A program made the position numbers and the translations under genes. A stretch of 64,000 nucleotides of DNA from Saccopteryx bilineata. Lineage: Eukaryota > Chordata > Mammalia > Chiroptera > Emballonuridae. The number at the start of each line of letters is the position of its first letter. The first letter of the stretch is position 1. The notes under the pieces were generated by a model that had not been told where the DNA came from, made no database searches, and saw only the letters and a program-made list of their open reading frames with translations. The DNA is taken from contig NC_089495.1 in NCBI RefSeq assembly GCF_036850765.1, positions 64,580,410-64,644,409 of the forward strand, read 5' to 3'. Positions 1-61,725 of the stretch are shown piece by piece.

Positions 1-911
1 AACAAACAAACAATCCAATAAAAAAATGGGAAGAGGATATGAATAGACACTTCTCCCAGGAAGAAATACAAATGGCCAACAGATATATGAAAAGATGCTC
101 ATCTTCTTTAGCTATTAGAGAAATGCAAATCAAAACGGCAATGAGATACCACCTCACACCTGTTCGATTAGCTGTTATTAGCAAGTCAGGTAATAGCAAA
201 TGTTGGAGAGGCTGTGGAGAAAAAGGAACCCTCATACACTGTTGGTGGGAATGTAAAGTAGTACAACCATTATGGAAGAAAGTATGGTGGTTCCTCAAAA
301 AACTGCAAATAGAACTACCTTATGACCCAGCAATCCCTCTACTGGGTATATATCCCCAAAACTCAGAAACATTGATACGTAAAGACACATGCAGCCCCAT
401 GTTTATTGCAGCATTGTTCACAGTGGCCAGGACATGGAAACAACCAAAAAGCCCATCAATAGATGACTGGATAAAGAAGATGTGGCACATATACACTATG
501 GAATACTACTCAGCCATAAGAAATGATGACATCGGAACATTTACAGCAAAATGGTGGGATCTTGATAACATGATACGAAGCGAAATAAGTAAATCAGAAA
601 AAACCAGGAACTGTATTATTCCATACGTAGGTGGGACATAATAGTGAAACTAAGAGACATTGATAAGAGTGGTGGTTATGGGGGGGAGGGGGGAATGGGA
701 GAGGGATAGGGGGTGGGGAGGGGCACAAAGAAAACAAGATAGAAGGTGACAGAGGACAATCTGACTTTGGGTGGTGGGTATGCAACATAATTGAACGACA
801 AGATAACCTGGACTTGTTATCTTTGAATATATGTATCCTGATTTATTGATGTCACCCCATTAAAAAAATAAAATTATATAAAAAATAAAAATTAAAATTA
901 AAAAAAAAAAG
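1..911 (+). mobile_element. LINE-1 (L1) 3' end, young, cut by window edge
   Basis: The segment holds the end of L1 ORF2, a short 3' UTR with a very G-rich tract (about 677-724), then an A-rich tail that ends near 911. The same 3' end recurs almost unchanged at 11103-11427, so this L1 family has moved recently in the lineage. The tail is followed directly by partial LTR sequence, so the L1 probably inserted into LTR A; the left target duplication lies outside the window. Confidence 0.93.
3..641 (+). CDS. L1 ORF2 protein, C-terminal part
   Basis: ORF2 encodes the L1 endonuclease and reverse transcriptase; only the last ~212 codons lie here and the frame is open from base 3, before the first ATG at 39, so the gene continues off the left edge. 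Recognisable family segments are the [18 protein letters not shown] block (a C-x3-C and H-x5-C cysteine-rich motif) and, further on, [29 protein letters not shown] and [11 protein letters not shown]. The protein ends PYVGGT at a TAA. The absence of stops or frameshifts across the visible part, with the near-identical 3' end at 11103, suggests a young copy. Whether the whole element is intact cannot be seen from this window. Confidence 0.9.
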
Positions 912-23891: not shown

Positions 23892-23894
23892 TAT

Positions 23895-26233
23895 CACTGG
23901 GGAACAAATTTTTTCATTTTCTGTTGCATGAGGTTTTAGAACTGTTTCTATATATATCTGCATTGCTGATTCCAAATCTGAAATCTGTTTTTGGTGCACG
24001 CTCTAGTTTTTATGCAATTTTATTTTATTTTATTTTTTACAGTTAATGGCATGCATTGGTTTTTCAATTGACGTTAAAGGGCAACGACTCTTGGATTGAA
24101 CATCACCACAAGGCAATTAATGTTTTACAAACATCACTTTTACATAATTGTAGTTGCTTTTAAATATAAAAAATCATTATCTGATAAAAACACCCTCTTA
24201 TTTTGTTTTAAGATTGAATCATGGCTTCTTTGACTAGGTGTAAATGTAAGAATAGTTCTTTTACATTATGTTATATGTATATATGTGGCTGTTACACACT
24301 TCAACATCAAAGGCACAATATTTCATCATTTGTGACACATGCATATATTGCCTATTTTCAAGTTCCCCTTGGTGATCAAGACAAGAATTGGGCTCCTCAT
24401 ACTGTGTGTCATAGTTGTGAGGAAATGCTTTGTGACTACACAAAGAAAAAAAAATGCAAAGGAATGCCTTTTGGTATTCCCATGGTTTGGTGTGAACCTA
24501 AGGACCACAGCAATGACTGTTATTTCTGTCTGATTCATACAAAGGGCATCAACAAGAAGAAACAGCATATGATTGCATATCCTAATATTCCTTCAGCAAT
24601 ACGACCTATCCCACACTATGAGAGACTCCCGGTTCCAGTTTTCAATGGTTTTATTTTTTCTAAGGATGAAGAAAGTGAAAATGGTGATCAAGTGTATTTT
24701 GATAAGATGCATGAGAAAATGGTTCTAGAATCTGAAGGGTCTTCTTCTGATGCCAAGAATCATTAACCCCTCAACAGTTTAGCCAACTCAAATTGAATGA
24801 CTTAGGAAGAGATTTGGGCCTATCAAAGAAAACAGCTGAGTTACTAGCCTCCAGGCTTCAAGAAAGGAATGTACTTCACTGGTCAGCTAAAATATCCCAT
24901 TTCAGGAAGCATGAACAAATTTTTGTGGACTTTTTTTCTGAAGACAAGCACTTTGTTTACTGTCATGATATCAGTAGTCTTCTCAGCCAGCTAGGTGTTA
25001 CCACTTACAGTCCAACAGAAAGGTGGCTACTTCTTGAGAGCTCTAAATGGACTCTGAAATGCGTTCTCCTATAGAACAGTAATGGTTATGCAGTGGTTCT
25101 AATTGGTTACTCAACTCATCTGCGATAAGATTATAATGACATAAAATTGTCCTTGACTTTCTGAAGTATGAGGAGCATAACTAGATCATTTGTGTGGATC
25201 TTAAAATCGTAAATTTCCTCCTAGATTGACTGAGAAGTATCACAAAGTATCCTTACTTTCTGTGTTTATGGGACAACCGAGCTTGAGAGAAACACTGAAC
25301 ACAGAAGGAGTGGCCAAAACCTGAAGCTGTGGAAGTAGGGATGCAAATATTGTGAATGAACCTGTAGCTAATTGAGACAGGATCATTTTTCTCCCACTTC
25401 ACATCAAACTTGGCTTAATGAAGCAGTTTGTTCAGGCTTTGAATAGAGAAAGTGAATGCTTTCAACATATTATTTCTGCTTTTCCTGACCTATCTTTCAA
25501 GAAGATAAAAGCAGGTGTATTTAATGGATCTCAAAATCAAACCCTCATATGTGATGAAGAATATGCCAGGAAGGTGAATAAGGAGGAGAAAGCAGCATGG
25601 CAGTCTTTTGTGGCAGTTACAAAGAACTTCCTTGGAAACAAAAAAGCAGAAAACTATGAACTTCTGGTTAAAAGGATGCTGTTGGCTTTCCATGACATTG
25701 GATGTCACATGAGCATTAAGATTCACTTCCTGAACAGTCACCTTGATAAGTTTTCCGAAAATCTTGGAGCTGTTAATGATGAGCAGACTTCTGCTGAAGT
25801 ATCAATCAAGATTTTCCTCAACAAGTACACAAACGGAAGAACAATTCAATAAAAATACAAATTTTTGCCTGAATAGAATTGAAATAAGTTTTGCACAAAT
25901 TTTATGATTAAAATAAGTGTTTTAATATGTTTTATTTTGAAATTGTAGACAAATTCTGGTGCAATTATGTCTTTTAGTGTATTAGTGTATTTACTGCTAC
26001 AGTAAATATAAATTATTATATTTTCACAAAGATGATACCCAAGAAGATATTCTATTTCATTATGTTAAACTAAATGTTGAAAATTTTACAATAAGATAAA
26101 AACCTAAAATCTTGAATTGCAAAAAAACCTGTAGCTTAAAGAGAAACACTAATGTCAGACTTGAGATCAGTACACTCGAGTTAGGTAAGAACAAGTGTTT
26201 TTGTGGATGCAACTAAAATTTTGTTCCCTAGTG
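23895..26233 (+). mobile_element. CACTA-like DNA transposon, copy 1 (2.34 kb)
   Basis: The left end CACTGGGGAACAAATTTTTT and the right end, read on the minus strand, CACTAGGGAACAAAATTTTA are inverted repeats (GTTGCAT recurs further inside both). The flanks are TAT at 23892-23894 and 26234-26236. CACTA/G ends plus a 3-bp duplication are the hallmarks of the CACTA (EnSpm/CMC) superfamily. Between them lies a decayed ~1.6-kb coding region. A second copy at 28498-30481 in the opposite orientation independently defines the same ends. The superfamily name is my inference; hAT is excluded because no 8-bp duplication is present. Confidence 0.82.
24221..25852 (+). pseudogene. Transposase-like zinc-finger protein of CACTA-like element, copy 1, broken
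   Basis: The frame starts with an ATG at 24221 (MASLTRCKCKN) and is open for 181 codons. Cysteine pairs are visible: CGCY region, CHSC, CYFC. Conserved blocks QVPLGDQDKNWAPHTVCHSC and PNIPSAIRPIPHYERLPVPV follow. A stop at 24764 and a frame change lead to LGLSKKTAELLASRL ... VYCHDISSLL ... KWTLKCVLL (24793-25074). After several stops the frame resumes at 25418 with MKQFVQALNRESECFQ, GVFNGSQNQTLICDEEY, NFLGNKKAENYELLV, GCHMSIKIHFLNSHLDKFSE and NDEQ. I recognise the whole as a protein family seen as many 'uncharacterized' copies in invertebrates such as cnidarians and insects; biochemical function is not known to me. Its position between inverted termini makes it the presumed transposase. After NDEQ the expected C-terminal segment is absent and the protein ends 20 residues later. 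Confidence 0.75.
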
Positions 26234-26236
26234 TAT

Positions 26237-26768
26237 TCCACCTTAAGCCCAAATAAACATGATATACATTGAGAGGATAGAAATCTTTGTCTCTTTTCCC
26301 TTCTCAGAAATAACTCAGTTACAACATTTAGGTGGATGAATATCTGTTACAGGATGTGGTGTCCTCTGCAGTTGTAGCCTTTACAACTGCTTTGCAGGGC
26401 AAGGATATGAAAATAATTTGCTGTCATTTTCTCTTTTTCTAAATTTCTCATAGACTGCTCTCACACCATTTTCTCAAATATTGATTCACTGTTTTTACCA
26501 TATTCAAAATATATTCTTAATATATTCAAAACACTGTTGAAAACATCCAAGTTTAAGAGACATGCTTTTGGAAAATAATACTTACCCTCACTATACTTTT
26601 GCTTATACCCAACCTTCTGAGTGAAAATGTAATGGGAAATTAATTTTGCAGATTTCCAAGACCTGGATTTGGTTCCTGGATCTGGATAATTGATACTTGT
26701 GTCATCTAAGGAAAACTATTACCATGTATGACCTTAATCTTTTCTCAGCAACAAAGCTATTTTAACAC
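26237..26768. other. Unassigned sequence between the CACTA-like copies
   Basis: Nothing recognised in this part of the 2.26-kb spacer. Confidence 0.45.
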
Positions 26769-26976
26769 CTCAAGTGAGACCATGGGGCCATCGTCATCAC
26801 CCAGGGTCAACTTTCTGAAACCATTTGAGCCATGACTGCAGAAGATGAAGAGCGAGAAAGAGAGAGAGAAGGGGAAAGAAGCAGATGGTAGTTTCTTCTA
26901 TGCACCCTGACCAGGAATCAAACTGGGACATGCACATACCTGGTGAAACTCTACCACTGAGCCAACCAGCCAGAGC
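26769..26976 (-). mobile_element. Type I bat SINE, antisense, 3' part lost
   Basis: Read from 26976 leftward, GCTCTGGCTGGTTGGCTCAG with GGTAGAG gives the head, then the B box region (TTTGATTCCTGGTCAGGGTG), an AG/CT tract and GGCTCAAATGGTTTCAG. The A-rich 3' end is not recognisable. Confidence 0.85.
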
Positions 26977-27024
26977 TAAATCTTTTAGTTTTAAAATGTG
27001 ATGGCCCAAGTTTTATTAAAAATT

Positions 27025-27235
27025 GGGCCCTTGCCTGTTAGCTCAGTTAGTTAAGAGAGTCATCCTAAAATGACAAGGTTGAGGGTTTGATCTCCAGTCA
27101 GAGCACACAAAGAAAAGAACCAATGAATGCACTACTGAGTGGAACAACAAATGAATGCTTCCCTTCCGTCTCCCCTCTCTCTCTCTCTTCTTCAATCTGT
27201 CTGTCTAAAAGTCAGTCAATAATTATTTTAAAAAT
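27025..27235 (+). mobile_element. VES SINE (older bat SINE family)
   Basis: Sequence blocks GTTAGCTCAGTTAGTTAAGA, GGGTTTGATCTCCAGTCAGA, CCAATGAATGCACTACTGAG and GGAACAACAAATGAATGC occur in the order of the VES SINE as I remember it. It differs from the type I-III SINEs elsewhere here. This is the best single clue that the genome is chiropteran. Confidence 0.82.
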
Positions 27236-27238
27236 TAA

Positions 27239-27400
27239 ACCCGGAACAGATAGCTCAGTTTGTTGGAGCATCATCCTGAAGTTCAAAGGTTGCCAGTTTG
27301 ATTCCTGGTCAGGGCATATAGAGGAACGATTCAGTGTCCTTGTTTCTCTATCTCACTCTCCCTGCCTCCTACTTAAAAAAAAAAAAAAAAAAAAAAAAAA
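27239..27400 (+). mobile_element. VES-like SINE, short
   Basis: GATAGCTCAGTTTGTTGGAG (A box), GTTTGATTCCTGGTCAGGGC (B box) and a short CT-rich body end in a 26-base poly(A). It directly follows the previous SINE and is colinear with it. Confidence 0.8.
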
Positions 27401-27432
27401 GATTTCAAATGTGTAAGAACAATTGTAACTGG

Positions 27433-27829
27433 TTTTTTTTTTTTTTTTTTGTATTTTTCTGAAGCTGGAAATGGGGAGAGACAGTCAGACAGACTCCCGC
27501 ATGCGCCCAACCGGGATCCACCTGGCACGCCCACCAGGGGGCGATGCTCTGCCCACCAGGGGGTGATGCTCTGCCCCTCCGGGGCGTCGCTCTGCCACGA
27601 CCAGAGCCACTCTAGCACCTGGGGCAGAGGCCAAGGAGCCATCCCCAGTGCCTGGGCCATCTTTGCTCCAATGGAGCCTTGGTTGCTGGAGGGGAAGAGA
27701 GACAGAGAGGAAGGAGGGGGGGGGTGGAGAAGCAAATGGGCGCTTCTCCTATGTGCCCTGGCCAGGAATCGAACCCGGGTCCCCCACATGCCAGGCCGAC
27801 GCTCTACCGCTGAGCCAACCGGCCAGGGC
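27433..27829 (-). mobile_element. Type I bat SINE, antisense, young
   Basis: A poly(T) at 27433-27450 is the reversed tail; on the minus strand the head GCCCTGGCCGGTTGGCTCAG starts at 27829 and B box GGTTCGATTCC is intact. It retains the duplicated 'CCCCCTGGTGGGC' segment of long copies. Possible duplication TTGTAACTG/CTGTAATTG is imperfect. Confidence 0.92.
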
Positions 27830-28074
27830 CTGTAATTGTTTTTTAAATGGCATAAATATATGAAAGATATGTATTTTGAGTTTTTAAAAAATATTAAACT
27901 AAATATTCTCTGCGTGTTTTATATCTGTATTATTAAGACAATATTTCAAAAAGTGGACATGTGGTACTAATTAATGTTACTGTCTCTCTTTAGAAATTAA
28001 TTGTTCTGTTTCTTTTTTAATGTATAACTCTATATTTATAAATATAATTTTAACATTTACCTTTTTTAAAAAAA

Positions 28075-28345
28075 ATAAGGGAACTGATGAGAGAGAGCAA
28101 AAAAGAACCAAAAACCCTCCAAAGAACAAAACCTCATGGACACAAACAACAGTGTGGTGATTGCCAGGGCAGGGGAGGAATTGGAAGAGGGAATAGGAGA
28201 AAGAAATAATGATGGATGGAGATTTCACTTGGGAGGGTTAACATACAATATGATGTACAGAGATGAGTTGTAGGATTGGGTACCTGAAACCTGAATAATT
28301 GTGTTAACTAGTTCCACTGTAATAAATTCAACAAAAAATTTAAAA
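28075..28345 (+). mobile_element. L1 3' UTR fragment
   Basis: CACAAACAACAGTGTGGTGA, a G/A-rich stretch, GTACAGAGATGAGTTGTAGG and GTACCTGAAACC followed by GTAATAAATTCAAC match the order of an older L1 3' tail. Nothing upstream of the 3' UTR is left. Confidence 0.75.
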
Positions 28346-28412
28346 AGATATATATATAATATTATATATATAATTATATAATTATATAATTATATATTAT
28401 ATAATTATAAAG
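28346..28412. repeat. (AT)-rich simple repeat
   Basis: ATATATA and TATAATTATATA units form an imperfect palindromic AT tract right after the L1 tail, probably grown from it. Confidence 0.85.
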
Positions 28413-28497
28413 CAAAAATACATTATAAATTATTTTTAAATGTTAATTTTGAGTTAGTAAGTCTATTAACAGAGAAAATATTACTCTATATAAATAA

Positions 28498-30481
28498 CAC
28501 TGGGGAAAAAAAGTTTTGTTGCATCCACAAAAAACACTTGTTCTTACCTAATTCGAGTGTACTGATCTCAAGTCTGATTTTAGTTTTTCTCTGTAAGATA
28601 CAGATTTTTTTGCAATTTAAGATTTTAGGTTTTCATCTTATTGTAAAATTTTCAACATTTAGTTTAACATAATGAAGTAGAATGTCTTCTTGAGCACAAT
28701 CTTTGTGAAAATATAATAATTTATATAATGCAGTAAATACACTAATACATTAAAAGATATGATTGCATCAGAATTTGTCTACAATTTCAAAATAAAACAT
28801 ATTAAAACACTTATTTTAATCATAAAATTTGTGCAAAACTTATTTTAATTCTATTCAGGAAGTATTTGTATTTGTAGCTCTTACATTTGTGTACTTGTTG
28901 AGGGCAATCTCAACTGATGCTCCAGCAGTAGTCTGCTCATCACTAACAGCTCCAAGATTTTTGGGAAACTTATTAAAGTGACTGTTCAGGGAATGAATCT
29001 TAACGCTCATGTTACATCTAATGTCACAGAAAGCCAATAGCATCCTTGGAACCAGAAGTTCATAGTTTTCTGCTTTTTTGTTGCCAAGAAAGTTCTTTTT
29101 AACTGCCACAAAAGACTGCCATGCTGTTTTCTCCTCCTTATTCATCTTTTTGGCAAATTCTTTGTCATGTATGAGGGTTTGAATTTGAGGTCCATCGAAT
29201 AAACCTGCTTTTATCTTCTCAAAAAACAAGGCAGGAAAAGCAGAAACAATATCTTGAAAGCATTCACTTTCTCTATTCAAAGCCTGAACAAACTGCTTCA
29301 TTAAGCCAAGTTTGATGTGAAGTGGGGAAAAAATGATCCTGTCTTGATTAACTACAGGTTCATTCATAATATTTTGCATCCCTACTTCCAGAGTTTCATG
29401 TTTCAGTCACTCCTTCTGTGTCTGGTGTTTTTCCCAAGCTCGGCTGTTCCACAAACACAGAAAGCAAAAATATTTCATTAAACCTCTCTATTGTTCTAGC
29501 CAGAAATTTACTGTTTTAAGATCCACATAAATGATCCAGTTATTCTCCTCATACTTCAGAAAGTCAAGGACATTCTTACTAAGTCATTCAAGTCGGGTTG
29601 GCTAAACTGCTGAGGGGTTAATGACTGCTTGGCTTCAAAAGAAACCCTTCAGATTCCACAACCATTTCATCATGCATCTTATCAAAATACACTTGATCAC
29701 TATGTTCACTTTCTTCATCCTTAGAAAAAATAAAACCATTGAAAACTGGAACTAGGAGTGTCTCAGAGTGTGGGATAGGTCACATTGCTAAAGGGATATT
29801 AGGATATGCAATCATATGCCATTTCTTTTTGCCAATGCCCTTTGTATGGATCAGACAGAAATAACAGTCACTGCTGTGGACCTTAGGTTCACAGCAAACC
29901 ATGGGAATACAAAAACGCATTCCTTTGTGTTGGTTTTCCTTCTGTCCAGTCATGAAGCATTTCCTCACAATTATGACACAATATGAGAAGTCTAATTCTT
30001 GTCTTGATCACCAAGGGGAACTTGAAAATAGGCAATATATGCATGTGTCCTAAATAATGAAATATTACACCTTTGACATTGAAGTTCATAACAGCCACAT
30101 ATATAACAGTAGGTGTTATGACTATTCTTACATTTATGCCTAGTCGAAGAAGCCATGTTTCAATCTTAAAACAAAATAAGAGGGTGTTTTTTATCAGATA
30201 ATGATTTTTTACATTTAAAAACAACTACAATTATGTAAAAGTGATGTTTGTAAAACATTAATTGCCTTGTGGTGATGTTCAATCCAAGAGTCGTTGCCCT
30301 TTAACTCCAATTTAAAAACCAATGCATGCCATTAACTGCAACAAAAAGAAATTAAAGTTGCATAAAAACTAGAGCGTGCACCTTAAACATATTTCATATT
30401 TGGAATTAGTGATGCAGAAATATATAGAAACAGTTCTAAAACCTCATGCAACAGAAAATGAAAAAAAAAATTTCCCCAGTG
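28498..30481 (-). mobile_element. CACTA-like DNA transposon, copy 2 (1.98 kb), inverted
   Basis: The left end CACTGGGGAAAAAAAGTTTT with GTTGCATCCAC, and the right end (minus strand) CACTGGGGAAATTTTTTTTT with GTTGCATGAGG, are inverted repeats flanked by TAA at 28495-28497 and 30482-30484. It aligns in reverse with copy 1 along its whole length except for ~340 bp of copy 1 (about 24812-25147) that are absent here. The different target duplications show two separate insertions, not an inversion of one. Confidence 0.83.
28855..30156 (-). pseudogene. Transposase-like zinc-finger protein of CACTA-like element, copy 2, broken
   Basis: From the ATG at 30156 the minus strand gives an N-terminus like copy 1, including AYIAYFKxPLGDQD-type sequence (here HAYIAYFQVPLGDQDKN), a CYFC pair (CYFCLIHTKGIGKKKWHM), and several stops. 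The middle region with LGLSKK...LKCVLL of copy 1 is deleted. Following sequence not easily read in copy 1 is clearer here: FLKYEENNWIIYVDLK. The last open segment (29379-28855, 174 codons) covers NEPVVNQDRIIFSPLHIKLG, LMKQFVQALNRESECFQ, GLFDGPQIQTLIHD, FLGNKKAENYELLV, and ends SDEQTTAGASVEIALNKYTN and a short tail. As in copy 1 the protein stops soon after DEQ. The two copies share the NKYTN tail, so the short C-terminus pre-dates both insertions. Confidence 0.74.
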
Positions 30482-30484
30482 TAA

Positions 30485-37109: not shown

Positions 37110-38170
37110 CTAGCTTCTTTTTTTTTAATTTTATTTTGAAAATTAGATTTAACAGGGTGACATTGATCAATAAGAGTACATTGGTTTCAGGTAAACATTC
37201 CTATAGCTTTGAACTGTTTATTATGTTTTATACCCATCACCCAAAATCAAATCATTTTCTGTCACCTTTTATTTGTCCTTCTTTATCCCCTCCCACACCC
37301 CCCCTCACATTCCCCTCACCCATGGCCCCTCTCCCTGGAACCACTTTTATCTCCGTCCATGACTTTCAGTTTTATATCCCACCTATGTGTGAAATCATGC
37401 AGTTTATAGCTTTTTCTCATTTACTAATTTCACTGAGTATAGTGTTCTCAAGGTCCATTCATATTGTCATAAATGGCACTACGTCATCATTTCTTATGGC
37501 TGAGAAGTAATCCATTGTACACACATACCATATCTTCTTTGTCCAATCCTCTATTTAGGGACACTTTGGTTGTTTCCATGTCTTGGCTACTGTAAATAAT
37601 ACTGCAATGAACTTGGAGGTGCATGTGTTTTTATGTACCAATGTTTTGAGTTTTTAGAGTATATACCCAGTAGAGGGATTGCTGAGTCATATGGTAGTTC
37701 TAGTCTTAAATTTTTGAAGAACGACTAACCATACTTTCTTTCATAATGACTGTACTAATTTGCATTCCCAGTAGCAGTGAATGTGATTCTTTTTTCTCCA
37801 CAGCCTCTCCAACACTTGTTATTACCTGCCTTGTTGATAATAGCCAATCTAACATGTGTGAGGTGGTATCTCATTGTAGTTTTGATTTGCATTTCTCGAT
37901 TAGCTAGTGAAGATGAGCATCTTTTTATATACCTGTTGGCCATTTGGATGTCCTCTTGGGAGAAGCACCTGTTCAGGTCTTTTCCTCCTTTTTAAATTAG
38001 ATTGTTAGCTTATTTGTTACTGAGCTTTGTCAGTTCTTTATGTATTTTGGATATTAACCCCTTATCAGAGTAGTTGTTTGCAAATAGCATCTCCCATTTA
38101 GTTGGCTGCTTATTTGTTTTGTTGTCAGTTTCTTTTGTTCTGCAAGCTTTTTCATATAGTCTAAATGTTC
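37110..38170 (-). mobile_element. L1 3' half, antisense, 5'-truncated
   Basis: On the minus strand this holds the C-terminal part of ORF2 and a 3' UTR with a T-run tail at 37110-37130. ORF2 blocks are visible: [20 protein letters not shown] (near 37943) and, further on, 'CWRGCGEK' sequence, the [16 protein letters not shown] block near 37670, and [15 protein letters not shown] sequence near 37500. Frameshifts and stops are present, so it is older than the 1-911 copy. Confidence 0.9.
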
Positions 38171-41798: not shown

Positions 41799-44335
41799 CA
41801 GTGGTACCTTGAGATACAAGTTTAATTCATTCTGTAACTGAGTTTGTAAGTCAGTCAACTTGTATATCAAATTTCTTCCATTTAAAATAACAGAAATAGA
41901 TTTAATTCATTCCAGCCCTGTGAAACATCCCCAAACCATCCTAAATTATGAAGAAAGACATGTTTTTAATTAAGAAACACACATGTATACTTTACCAATG
42001 CATAAAAAAATATATGAAATAAAAGAAAAAAGTGTTATTTAGTTTTGAATTCTTACCTTGGAGACAGATGAGTGCGGCTAAAGGAGGTGAATGGCAGAGG
42101 AGGAGAGAGGGAGGAAGAGATGCAGGCACTGTAGACACGTAAACTAAAACTGCACTTTCTTAACACTAAATGTAAACTAAAACTGCATTTTCTTTACTTT
42201 AAACAAAACTAGAACTGCACTTTCTTAACTTAAAATAAAAAACTTAGTTGTAAAAAATGCACTTTCTTAACTTTAAATTTAACTTAAGCTTAACATTATG
42301 TATTTTTTATTTAATCATCACCTGTTTTTGCCTTTTTGGCTGCACTTTCAGCATGTTTAGTTGTAAATCTTTTGAATAAAAATCTATCCAAAGAGGTTTG
42401 CTTTTGCCTGCCTTTTAAAATGTTACGGAAATGTGACAAACAAGTGTCATTAAAAAGTGCTGAAGCACGACCAGTTCAAACTTTTTCTGGTGTTTCTTTT
42501 CAATGAAACTTGAAAGCTTCTCCCACATTGCCAGCATGTCTTTAATTTCACTTGTAGAAATCACTTCCTCTGACTCTACCTCCTCCTCACTACTAATCTC
42601 TTGCAGAAGCTCAGTATGCTGCATCATCTGTAGCTCCTTCAACTCCTCAGTTGAGAGTTCCTCCTTGTGTTCCTCGATGAGCTCGTTTACATCACCCTCA
42701 TCTACCTCCAGACCCATCGACTTTCCGAGGGACACAATCTCCTCCAACGGTTCTACCTTGGTCTTGGTCTCTGGTTCAAATCCTTCGAAGTCCCTGTCTG
42801 CAACAACATCAGGCCATAACTTTTTCCATGCCAAGTTCAAGGTTCTTCTTGTAACCTGTTGCCATTCCAAGTCAATAATGCGTAAACATATTACGATGTT
42901 GTAGTGATCTTTCCAAAATTCTCAAAGGGTTAGATTTGTATTTTCAGTCACCTCAAAGCAGCGGCAGAACAAGTGCTTTGTGTAGAGCTATTTAAAGTTG
43001 GAAATGACCTGCTGATCCATAGGTTGCAAGATTGAAGTCGTGTTGGGTGGGAGGTAGAGGATTTTCACAAATTTGAACTCATTGAGAATGTTTACTTCAA
43101 GATCAGGCAGATGGGCTAGAGCATTTTTAAGGATTAGTAATGCTTTCATTTGGAGTTTATTTTCTTGAAGATATTTCCTCACTGCAGGACCAAAAACGAG
43201 ATTTACTCATTCAATAAAAAAGTGCCGCGTAACCAATGCCCTAGCATTTGTGAGCCACATAAGCTGCAGCTTTTCTTTAAAAATCTTGTGAGTCTTAAAG
43301 GCTCGAGGATTTTCAGAATGATACACTAACAGTGGCTTTACTTTACAGCCACCGCTAGCATTTGCACACAATGTAAGGATCAGACAGTCCTTCATGGGTT
43401 TATGGCCTGGCAGCTTCTTCTCCTCTGCAGTAATGTAAATCTTCCAGGGCATTTTTTTCCAAAACAATCCTGTTTCGTCACAGTTGAACACTTGTTGGGG
43501 GATGTAGCCTTCGTTTGCGATAAGTGCAGCAAAACGTGAGATGTATTCCTCAGCTGCCTTAACGTCAGCACTCATGGCTTCACCATGCCTCACCACTGAG
43601 TAGATGCCAGATCTCTTCTTGAAATTTTCAAACCAGCCGTGACTTGCCTTAAATGTATCTTCTGTTGCTTCTTTTGAGATTGATGGTTCTTTCTTCTTCA
43701 AGATGCCATAAATAATAGGTGCCTTGTTGCATATTACAGTCTCCTTCACTGTATCTTCTGCCAGCTCTTTCTCTATCACCCACACCAGCAGAAGCTTCTC
43801 CATTTCTTCATGGATATTTGTCCTTAATTGGGAAAGAATTGTAGTTCTTTGCACTGGACTTGCACTTTGGATGGCATCTTTTTGTTTAAGAATGATACAA
43901 ATTGTAAATGTATTGCGGTCGTACAGTCTTGCCAGTTCAATTACTGATACACCACGCTCATGTTTTTCTATTATTTCTTGCTTTACTTCTATTGACTTCA
44001 TTCTCTTCCTCTTCTCACCACTGTCCTTTACACTCACTTTCTTCAGCCCCTTGATAGCACACAAAAAAAGTTAGTAAAAAATGCAAAAATAATGCAAGAA
44101 CGAGTACAGCGCACAAGATTTGACTTGATTCTGCAGGTAACGTGAGAAAGAAAGAGATGCTGGTGTTGTGCTGCCAATACTAGAACTGTGCGCCAACATG
44201 CCAACTAGTGGCAGCTTCTTGAATCACGATTCATATCTCAGAATTTTCTTGGATCTTGAACAAAAATACGGACTGAGTCGCAGCTCGTATCTTAAAATTC
44301 ATATGTTGGTTTGTTTGTATCTCAAGGTACCACTG
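41799..44335 (-). mobile_element. Tigger-type (Tc1/mariner) DNA transposon, complete ends
   Basis: The element starts CAGTGGTACCTTGAGATACA and ends GTATCTCAAGGTACCACTG; these are inverted repeats. TA dinucleotides at 41797-41798 and 44336-44337 are the target duplication of Tc1/mariner elements. The length is 2,537 bp, near the expected full length of Tigger elements. No other element has inserted into it. The transposase runs on the minus strand. Confidence 0.95.
42415..44064 (-). pseudogene. Tigger transposase (CENP-B/jerky-like), three nonsense stops, no frameshift
   Basis: This would be a transposase that binds the inverted repeats in the nucleus and cuts with a DDE/D domain. The segment 44064-42415 is one frame of 550 codons. 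The N-terminus (EKRKRMKSIEVKQEIIEKHERGVSVIELARLYDRNTFTIC) is a psq-type helix-turn-helix. The second, CENP-B-type HTH carries LLLVWVIEKELAEDTV, and FKASHGWFENFKKRSGI is its characteristic end. The catalytic region has FNCDETGLFWKKMP, then CANASGGCKVKPLLVYHSENPRAFK, and LPPNTTSILQPMDQQVISNFK. An acidic C-terminal region (EELSTEELKELQ; EISSEEEVESEE) follows, as in the family. In-frame stops are at 43207-43209 (TGA), 42988-42990 (TAG) and 42922-42924 (TGA). The 44064 start is a TTG; the first ATG is at codon 22, so the original start is probably also lost. The stops rule out a full-length product; it is not the host TIGD gene because the transposon ends are intact. Confidence 0.88.
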
Positions 44336-52689: not shown

Positions 52690-54590
52690 TAATTAGATGG
52701 TATTTTCAATAAATGGTTTTGAGAACACTAGACAAATCATCCAAAAAATGAAACTAGACCAGCTTCTTACACAATACACAAGAATTAACTCAAAATAGAT
52801 TAAAGCAGTGGTGGGATTCAGCCAGTTCTCACTGGTTAGGCAGAACTGATATCTAATTTTTGTTGAGTTCTGTGAACTGATTGGTAAAAAGGCACTTGTA
52901 ATCAAGGTTCTCTCTGAGGTGGGTGCCTGGGCAGCCACCCAATATGGAAATCACAAATTTACATTCATTACTTGTTTATAAGATTAATATGCAAAACAGT
53001 ATATTCTAAGTGCCTGTAGTAATGTTCATTCTGTCCATAGGTTAAAAAAGTTGCAAGTTAGGACGCAAATCAAGAAGCAGTATGAAATATCTTAAATAAT
53101 AGTTTTATTGTTTTTTTCAGGTATTATTTAATATTTTTCATTAATATTTTAAAATTTATTCTTATCACATAATCTAGTTTTGTATACCTCTTTTATTTTT
53201 CTTATTTAACTATAAAATGCATGAAATAATATAATATCTTTCAGTGTATTTTTTTTATACTTAACACAGTCATTAGGGTAGAAAATTGTTTGTTAAATTG
53301 TTTGAATCTCACTATTGGATTTAAGACTTAGATGTTAGACTTAAAACCATAAAAGTCCAGGAGAAACTATAGGAGGTAAAATCTTGGATATTTTTCATAG
53401 CAATATATTTTTCTAATATATCTTTTCAGGCAAGGAAAACAAATAAGACTACATTAAACTGAAAAGGTTTTGTATAACAAAGAAAATTATCAACAAATTA
53501 AAAAATGACCCTTTAATGGAAGAACGTATTTGACAACATCTGATAGGGCTAAATATCCAAAATTTACAAAGAACGTATAATTATGCTAAATTTCAACACC
53601 AAAACCACAAACAATCCAATTAAGAATTGGGAAAAAGAAATCTGAATAGCAACTTTTCCAAAGAAGACATAAAGATATTCAATAGGCATATCAAAAGATA
53701 CTAAATATCATTAATCATCAGAGAAATACAAATTAAATCCACAATGAAATATCACCTCACACCTATGAGAACTGCTATTATCAATAAATCAACAAACAGT
53801 AAGTGTTGGCAAGGGTGTGGAGAAAAGGGAACCTTCATGCAATGGCAATAGAAATGCAGATTGGTGCAGCCACTGTGAAATCCATTATGGAGTTACCTTT
53901 AAAAACTAAAAATGGAATTACCTTATGACCAAGTGACCTCTGAGAATATAAACTAAGAAACTCAACCAAAGTACTAAATTGAAGGAATTTACTCATGTTT
54001 ATCTTTATTGCAACATTATTTATAACAGCCGAGATTTAAAAGCTGCCCAAGTATCCATTAGTAAATGAGTGGATAAAAATGCTATGGTACATTTACACAA
54101 TGAAATACTGCTTAGTCATAAAAAAGAGAGAAATCTTACCCTTTGCAACAACATGGACGGACCTGGAGAGCATTATGCTAAGTGAAATAAGCCAGTCACA
54201 GAAAGACAGATACCATCTGATTTCACTTATATGTGGGCCATAGGGACCAAAATAAACTTAACAAACAACATAGACAGATGGAGATCAGGCTGACAGCTAT
54301 TGGGGTGTGTAGATGAGATTAGAAGGATTAAGTAAAAATTAAAAACAAAGAGAAAAATCTCCTGGATATGTACAACAAAGTGGCGATGGCCAGGCAAAGT
54401 GAGTTAAGGGGAGGTATATAAGGATATGGGGGAAATAAATGGTGATGAAAGAAGACTTGACTTGTGGTGGTGAATACACAATGCAGTGCAGAGATGCTGT
54501 GTTATGGAATTGTGCACCTCAAACGTATATAATCTTGTTAACTAACATCACCTTAATAAATTCAATTTAAGAATAAAAATAAATAAACAA
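52690..54590 (+). mobile_element. Older L1, 3' part, split by a hAT MITE
   Basis: ORF2-derived sequence begins near 52690 (ATTTTCAATAAATGGTTTTG ... CACAAGAATTAACTC), is broken by the MITE 52806-53317, and continues through TAAGACTACATTAAACTGAA, CTATTATCAATAAATCAAC, the CGGACCTGGAGAGCATTATG motif of the ORF2 end/3' UTR, and a tail at 54590. The coding frame is destroyed. The long stretch from ORF2 to tail is about 1.4 kb without the MITE. Confidence 0.93.
52806..53317. mobile_element. hAT-type MITE inserted in L1
   Basis: Ends CAGTGGTGGGATTCAGCCAG and (minus strand) CAATAGTGAGATTCAAACAA are inverted repeats. Flanking octamers GATTAAAG (52798-52805) and GATTTAAG (53318-53325) match at seven of eight bases. 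This is the family of 35981-36890, present here at 512 bp in opposite orientation. No coding capacity. Confidence 0.88.
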
Positions 54591-61348: not shown

Positions 61349-61725
61349 GCCCTGGCCGGTTGGCTCAGTGGTAGAGCATCGGCCTGGCATGCAGGAGTGC
61401 TGGGTTCGATTCCTGGCCAGGGCACACAGGAGAAGCACCCATCTGCTTCTCCACCCCTGCCCCTCTCCTTCCTCTCTGTCTCTCTCTTCCTCTCCTGCAG
61501 CCAAGCTCCATTGGAGCAAAGTTGGCCCGGGCACTGAGGATGGTTCTATGGCCTCTGCCTCAGGTGCTAGAATGGCTCTGGTTGCAACAGAGCAATGCCC
61601 CGGATGGGCAGAGCATCGCCCCCTGGTGGGCATGCCAGGTGGATCCCAGTTGGACGAATGCGGGAGTCTGTCTGACTGCCTCCTCCTCGTTTCCAGCTTC
61701 AGAAAATAACAACAACAACAAAAAA
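61349..61725 (+). mobile_element. Type I bat SINE, young
   Basis: GCCCTGGCCGGTTGGCTCAG head, GGTTCGATTCCTGG B box, full body and (CAA)n A-rich tail. The exact duplication GTCTATTTCTG lies at 61338-61348 and 61726-61736. Confidence 0.95.

What the first reader, a model, noticed from the sequence alone, without database searches (positions are those of the whole stretch)
23895..30481. CACTA-like DNA transposon family in a bat genome
Two copies have ends beginning CACTG/CACTA, matched inverted repeats and 3-bp target duplications (TAT and TAA). They carry a cysteine-rich protein family I know mainly from invertebrate genomes. CACTA (EnSpm/CMC) elements are not a familiar part of mammalian genomes, so this could be a horizontal transfer into bats or an undescribed mammalian family.
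Basis: partly seen in the sequence, partly recalled or inferred. Interest (0 to 1): 0.85.

Follow-up and report, generated by a model that had tools for sequence, protein, structure and literature searches.

The report
Chapaev3 DNA transposons in a bat
The window holds two worn-out copies of a cut-and-paste "jumping gene" of the Chapaev3 type, whose enzyme folds like the RAG1 protein that cuts our antibody genes; the family is young, has thousands of copies in this bat-like genome and probably came in from an arthropod, but its type is already known from another mammal.

Summary

New here: the window copies belong to a non-autonomous subfamily. All 41 copies examined share one 76-bp frameshifting deletion (GCAG microhomology) that cuts off most of the catalytic helix; its junction occurs at least 2372 times in the 2.61-Gb genome. 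Undeleted copies also exist, one with an uninterrupted but decaying 571-aa ORF. Sampled copies lie 2-6.5% from consensus (roughly 10-30 Myr), and their proteins group with arthropod sequences. Horizontal transfer followed by trans-mobilisation is the best reading, but no related bat genome was available to test lineage restriction. My searches of the held library listed no report of a bat Chapaev.

The parts
23895..26233 (+). Copy A: Chapaev3-type transposon, long subtype with the 76-bp deletion, 2339 bp
   Evidence: Terminal inverted repeats and alignment to B and to 39 genomic copies
23892..23894 (+). Left 3-bp target duplication TAT of copy A (preceded by A)
   Evidence: Read directly
26234..26236 (+). 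Right 3-bp target duplication TAT of copy A (followed by T)
   Evidence: Read directly
24221..25876 (+). Decayed transposase gene of copy A (ATG to the ancestral TAG), interrupted by stops and frameshifts
   Evidence: Frames; protein homologues of sister copies; C-terminal frame
25786..25787 (+). Junction of the 76-bp deletion in copy A
24811..25141 (+). Internal segment present in A but missing from B and the short subtype (limits approximate)
28498..30481 (-). Copy B: same family, short subtype, 1984 bp
28495..28497 (+). 3-bp target duplication TAA of copy B, low-coordinate side
   Evidence: Read directly
30482..30484 (+). 3-bp target duplication TAA of copy B, high-coordinate side
   Evidence: Read directly
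28851..30156 (-). Decayed transposase gene of copy B (ATG to the ancestral TAG)
   Evidence: Frames; longest open piece 183 aa
28932..28933 (-). Junction of the same 76-bp deletion in copy B

Best explanation
Both copies are dead members of a recently active Chapaev3 (CMC group) cut-and-paste DNA transposon family. A RAG1/Transib-like DDE transposase, supplied in trans by undeleted sister copies, recognised the CACTGGGGAACAA ends, excised the element and inserted it between A and T at TWA targets, duplicating 3 bp. The window copies descend from one progenitor that had lost 76 bp of the transposase gene. That progenitor was non-autonomous and was amplified to at least 2372 junction-bearing copies, including a second subtype with a further internal deletion. 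The family most likely entered this bat lineage horizontally, with arthropods as the likeliest donor side, some 10-30 Myr ago, and is now decaying. Shown: ends, duplications, copy number, shared deletion, existence of undeleted copies, fold of a homologue, relative youth. Inferred: enzyme activity, trans-mobilisation, donor, lineage restriction, host being a bat.
For: Ends and duplications: 18 of 35 copies have exact 3-bp duplicates (8 TTA, 6 TAA, 4 others); 17 of these 18 are preceded by A and 18 of 18 followed by T. PMC4079192 gives this TWA-between-A-and-T signature for all Chapaev3 it examined.

Protein: 1899 homologues at E<=0.001. The 76-sequence alignment keeps C354/C357, L402 H403, H511/H516, D281, D335 and E530, matching the C(2)C, LH, H(4)H and DDE motifs named in the paper.

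Deletion: 41 of 41 copies examined show the junction in the printed sequence, L013 with one extra base and L031 with one substitution. In the undeleted copy L057 the missing stretch is exactly 76 bp between GCAG repeats. The ancestral C-terminus is still readable in another frame. Genome count 1217 + 1155 = 2372 at up to 2 mismatches, backwards control 0.

Undeleted copies: one search scored 150 of 3096 candidates; one search prints the intact segment for L057 and 6 of the 7 other loci looked at, and L053 reads through it in its ORF.

Age: non-CpG K2P to the 41-copy majority has mean 3.2%, range 2.2-6.5%; A 5.5%, B 6.5%.

Origin: in a 25-row tree the bat ORFs join an unnamed ENA sequence (100/99), then a stick-insect group (99/98).

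Empty site: L042 sits in a dispersed repeat whose other copies run through the insertion point.
Against: No sequence labelled Chapaev3 was available for direct comparison, so membership rests on features. 17 of 35 copies lack an exact duplicate, and 12 of 35 have T instead of A before CACTG; 10 of those 12 have imperfect duplicates, which I cannot explain. The 39 fetched copies were the best matches to a piece of A that includes the deletion junction, so the sample is biased towards the deleted form and towards young copies. The one open ORF (L052/L057) has 7 of 107 family-invariant positions changed, so no demonstrably active copy was found. Undeleted copies could not be counted. No related bat genome could be searched, so horizontal transfer and lineage restriction are inferred.
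Confidence: 0.8

Rival explanations
1. A CACTA/EnSpm element proper.
For: CACTG/CACTA ends and a 3-bp duplication.
Against: TWA target between A and T, C(2)C/LH/H(4)H motifs and a RAG1/Transib-like core are the published Chapaev3 features. No Pfam transposase family is hit in any of 76 homologues at E<=0.01.
Confidence: 0.06
2. An old mammalian family inherited vertically, not a horizontal transfer.
For: Chapaev3 occurs in another mammal, the tenrec (PMC4079192); lineage restriction could not be tested here, and the sampled copies are biased young.
Against: The 41 sampled copies are 2-6.5% from consensus, far too young for placental ancestry. L042 inserted into an already dispersed repeat. [quoted passage not shown]
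Confidence: 0.06
3. A domesticated transposase: the undeleted copy with an uninterrupted 571-aa ORF is a host gene kept by selection.
For: The ORF is open, while the other seven loci returned show shorter open pieces; dN/dS is 0.45 against 0.69 pooled in nine decaying copies, whose single values run from 0.51 to 1.28 (uncorrected counts).
Against: 7 of 107 family-invariant residues are changed, including the LH histidine; my rough estimate for neutral change is about 6. Both transposon ends are present. 19 synonymous and 33 other changes against 144 and 386 is a weak contrast.
Confidence: 0.04
4. Insect DNA contamination of the assembly.
For: Closest named relatives are arthropods.
Against: The 40 scored places lie on the large contigs C1-C13 (59-408 Mb), 2372 junctions were counted genome-wide, flanks have their own duplications, and copies have decayed individually.
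Confidence: 0.01

Closest known systems
Conan (Chapaev3-1_ET) of the tenrec and anole lizard
   Same: Chapaev3 group, in a mammal, attributed to horizontal transfer (26-36 Ma in tenrec), 5'-CAC...GTG-3' ends and TWA duplication (PMC4079192).
   Different: Host lineage. Conan_ET is 1,865 bp, one 461-aa exon, 88 copies; here about 2.0-2.3 kb, at least 2372 deleted copies, and a 571-aa frame in an undeleted one. Sequence identity could not be tested (Conan not held).
Merrow (lampreys, fish, dragonfly) and Garfield (insects, a bracovirus)
   Same: Chapaev3, 2.3-2.45 kb in full-length form, 556-562-aa transposases, shared across distant animals (PMC4079192).
   Different: Those are reported as two-exon genes; the bat family reads as one frame (in one copy; in a majority sequence, with one stop). 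Not compared by sequence.
Transib / RAG1
   Same: Core fold aligns over residues 193-572 of the homologue P0003.
   Different: About 10-14% identity in the best rows; no RAG2 partner was looked for. The profile match to the RAG1 of this genome was not significant.
Kenshin and Buster2 (bat horizontal transfers)
   Same: DNA transposons of bats with invertebrate relatives; Kenshin ends in CACTAG(A) (PMC4298943).
   Different: piggyBac and hAT superfamilies, with other transposases.

Membership tests
CMC-Chapaev3 | 5'-CAC ... GTG-3' termini | tested here: met
   A, B and most of 35 two-ended copies; majority sequence of 10 long copies has 13 perfect TIR bases, CACTGGGGAACAA
CMC-Chapaev3 | 3-bp TWA duplication, flanked by A and T | tested here: met
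   18 of 35 exact; 14 of those TTA or TAA; A before in 17 of 18, T after in 18 of 18; re-pairing mean 5.7, max 13. 17 of 35 are not exact
CMC-Chapaev3 | C(2)C, LH and H(4)H motifs with DDE | tested here: met
   C354/C357, L402-H403, H511/H516, D281, D335, E530 invariant or nearly so in the 76-row alignment. That E530 is the catalytic Glu is inferred from its match to E962 of the RAG1 in this genome
CMC-Chapaev3 | RAG1/Transib-like transposase core | tested here: met
CMC-Chapaev3 | N-terminal cysteine-rich Chapa domain shared with RAG1 | tested here: inconclusive
   Conserved Cys pairs; weak zf-AD hits in 6 of 76; hhalign places the region on the RAG1 N-terminus but without significance
CMC-Chapaev3 | Clusters with named Chapaev3 transposases in a tree | not testable with these tools
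   No Repbase or Dfam sequence held
CACTA/EnSpm proper | EnSpm-type transposase | tested here: inconclusive
   No Pfam transposase model hit in 5 window pieces or 76 homologues; absence of a hit is weak evidence
CACTA/EnSpm proper | CACTA/CACTG ends with 3-bp duplication | tested here: met
   Met, but shared with Chapaev3, so not diagnostic
Conan family of Chapaev3 | At least 80% nucleotide identity to Conan_ET | not testable with these tools
   Sequence not held

The most novel reading that the evidence does not exclude
A second, independent Chapaev3 invasion of mammals, in one bat lineage. A RAG1-like transposase from the arthropod side entered the germ line roughly 10-30 Myr ago and was then overrun by a single 76-bp-deletion derivative, whose long-subtype copies still carried about 520 codons of a transposase that has lost most of its catalytic helix. 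Such a product could bind ends without cutting and so may have helped to shut the family down.
Probability: 0.45. Interest if true: 0.6.

Novelty: new member of a known kind. Interest (0 to 1): 0.42.

Why it matters
Bats are described as repeated recipients of DNA transposons, but the bat reports I could read concern hAT, piggyBac and Tc/mariner elements (PMC4298943 parts 1-2, PMC4971623 passages). A young Chapaev3 family with thousands of copies would add a RAG1-like transposase to the set that invaded mammals, beside the tenrec case. Because undeleted and deleted copies survive in one genome, it would be a clean case for asking how a defective derivative takes over a family.

Tried and rejected
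Led nowhere: Pfam on the window pieces and on 76 homologues gave no transposase family. PDB by sequence gave one hit, E 0.63. tblastn of P0003 in the phage records gave none. Scans of viral and prokaryote contigs gave 72 and 52 pattern matches, none a relative. Paper searches around Chapaev, CMC, CACTA or bat transposon transfer listed no title or abstract on a bat Chapaev. Of the papers listed for Chapaev with bat or bats (11, 14) I opened five: PMC4298943, PMC4411706, PMC3501640, PMC12730594, PMC7397244; none reports one in the text seen. The paper I recalled on bat transposon transfers (10.1093/molbev/msad092) is not held, so 'undescribed' is limited to this library. The 5'-end pattern (96 matches) is no copy count, because its T-run varies in length. 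A pattern count of undeleted copies and a 3'-end count did not complete.

Considered and rejected: (a) the shared tail after SDEQ as foreign sequence; it is the ancestral C-terminus in another frame. (b) E533 as the catalytic Glu (my note); the RAG1 numbering points to E530 instead, which the deletion spares by one residue. (c) Domestication of the open copy.

Papers seen: PMC4079192 parts 1-4 of 6; PMC4298943 parts 1-2 of 4; PMC4411706, PMC4971623, PMC5664122, PMC3501640, PMC12730594 and PMC7397244 passages; others as search listings only.
Full report
WHAT IS THERE. The finding's span 23895-30481 holds two related elements in opposite orientation, separated by about 2.3 kb with SINE-like repeats. 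Copy A is 23895-26233 and copy B 28498-30481 (reverse strand). A is flanked by TAT, B by TAA. Each has its own duplication, so they are independent insertions. They are 87-88% identical in shared parts; B lacks about 0.33 kb that A has. A search of the window with A and B found no further copy.

FAMILY IN THE GENOME. The window lies in a 2.61-Gb assembly. A 496-bp piece of A gave 40 scored matches (A itself, 39 others at 93-94%) out of 2821 first-look candidates. I fetched the 39 others. Of 41 copies including A and B, 17 are of the long and 24 of the short subtype. Of 35 with both ends, 18 have identical 3-bp flanks; re-pairing gives 5.7 on average and never more than 13 in 20,000 trials; no copy has 4-bp identity. 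The exact duplicates are 8 TTA, 6 TAA and one each of TAT, CAA, TTT and ATA; 17 of 18 follow an A and all 18 precede a T. Of 37 joined flank pairs held against the window and the fetched loci only, one (L042) matches a dispersed repeat (LINE-1 by recall) straight across the insertion point, in five places at 66-75% identity. The empty site printed reads TAA there, L042's right flank reads TAA and its left flank TAT; a 12-base gap lies just beyond the site. Against a simple picture: 12 of 35 copies have T directly before CACTG and 10 of these lack an exact duplicate. I have no explanation.

THE SHARED LESION. In 41 of 41 copies the junction after SDEQ is the same in the printed sequence, L013 with one extra base and L031 with one substitution. 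The tail that follows is the ancestral C-terminus in another frame. Comparison with the undeleted copy L057 shows the loss of exactly 76 bp between two GCAG words. The loss removes most of the helix that begins at E530 (helix 530-546 in the model) and shifts the frame. The ancestor of this subfamily was otherwise nearly intact: the majority sequence of 10 long copies is 2321 bp with 383 + 166 codons in one frame, parted by one stop. The junction word occurs 2372 times with up to 2 mismatches, none in the backwards control. Copy A itself differs from the word at 3 places, so the count is a lower bound; the undeleted copy differs from it at 5 places, so such copies are not counted (my comparison of the printed letters).

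UNDELETED COPIES. A 59-aa C-terminal query scored 150 places out of 3096 candidates. The intact segment was printed for L057 and for 6 of the 7 other loci looked at; the seventh, L053, reads through it in its ORF. One copy (L052/L057) has an uninterrupted 571-aa frame and both ends, with an insertion in its 3' untranslated part; its flanks read TTT and TTA. It differs from the deleted-family majority by about 3.5%. Its dN/dS is 0.45, against 0.69 pooled over nine decaying copies (0.51-1.28), and 7 of 107 family-invariant residues are changed. I read it as a lucky relic, not a working enzyme or a host gene.

AGE AND ORIGIN. Non-CpG distances to the 41-copy majority average 3.2% (range 2.2-6.5%; A 5.5%, B 6.5%); eight undeleted loci lie 1.5-4.1% from their own majority. 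At 2.2e-9 (recalled) to 2.9e-9 per site per year (the tenrec rate in PMC4079192), and with age taken as distance over rate (that paper divides by twice the rate), this is about 11-15 Myr for the sample mean and 19-30 Myr for A and B. Both samples favour young copies. In a 25-row tree of rows that I chose (midpoint root, bat rows under half filled) the bat ORFs join an unnamed ENA sequence (P0001; 82% identical to the query), then a stick-insect group (support 99/98). This fits transfer from the arthropod side, but neither donor nor date is fixed.

COMPARISON WITH WHAT IS KNOWN. PMC4079192 (parts 1-4 read) describes Chapaev3 elements with CAC...GTG ends, TWA duplications between A and T, C(2)C/LH/H(4)H motifs and repeated horizontal transfers, including Conan in the tenrec. 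PMC4411706 (passages) places Chapaev3 in the Transib/RAG1 superfamily. Four Chapaev3 features tested were met, one (Chapa domain) was inconclusive and one (tree with named members) was not testable; on that I file the family there. Whether it is Conan could not be tested. PMC4298943 describes other bat transfers (hAT, piggyBac). My ten paper searches listed no Chapaev in bats.

VERDICT. A real, young, multi-copy Chapaev3 family in a bat-like genome: a new member of a known kind, with a well-resolved deletion history. The CACTA label should be replaced.

Noticed in passing
window 43207-44070 (-): 287-aa open frame of another DNA transposon, pogo/Tigger-like (name recalled): Pfam HTH_Tnp_Tc5 (2.4e-9) and DDE_1 (3.3e-9).
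   Followed up: partly
window 26790-27835: Several SINE-like repeats between A and B, recalled as bat VES/Rhin-type; a similar SINE is inserted inside the Chapaev3 copy L037, so such SINEs were active after that insertion.
   Followed up: partly
window 42139-42240: Short minisatellite, period 32-33, about 3 copies.
   Followed up: no
window 61349-61425 (+): ARAGORN calls a tRNA-Ala (GGC anticodon); bacterial settings, may be a pseudogene.
   Followed up: no
L010, L015, L016, L022, L026, L028, L042, L045, L046, L047 (5' ends): T instead of A directly before the 5' end, with imperfect duplicates; seems too frequent for random decay and is unexplained.
   Followed up: partly
window 7-338, 37674-38006, 53605-53928: Fragments of one dispersed repeat (LINE-1 3' part by recall), which serve as empty sites for the L042 insertion.
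   Followed up: partly
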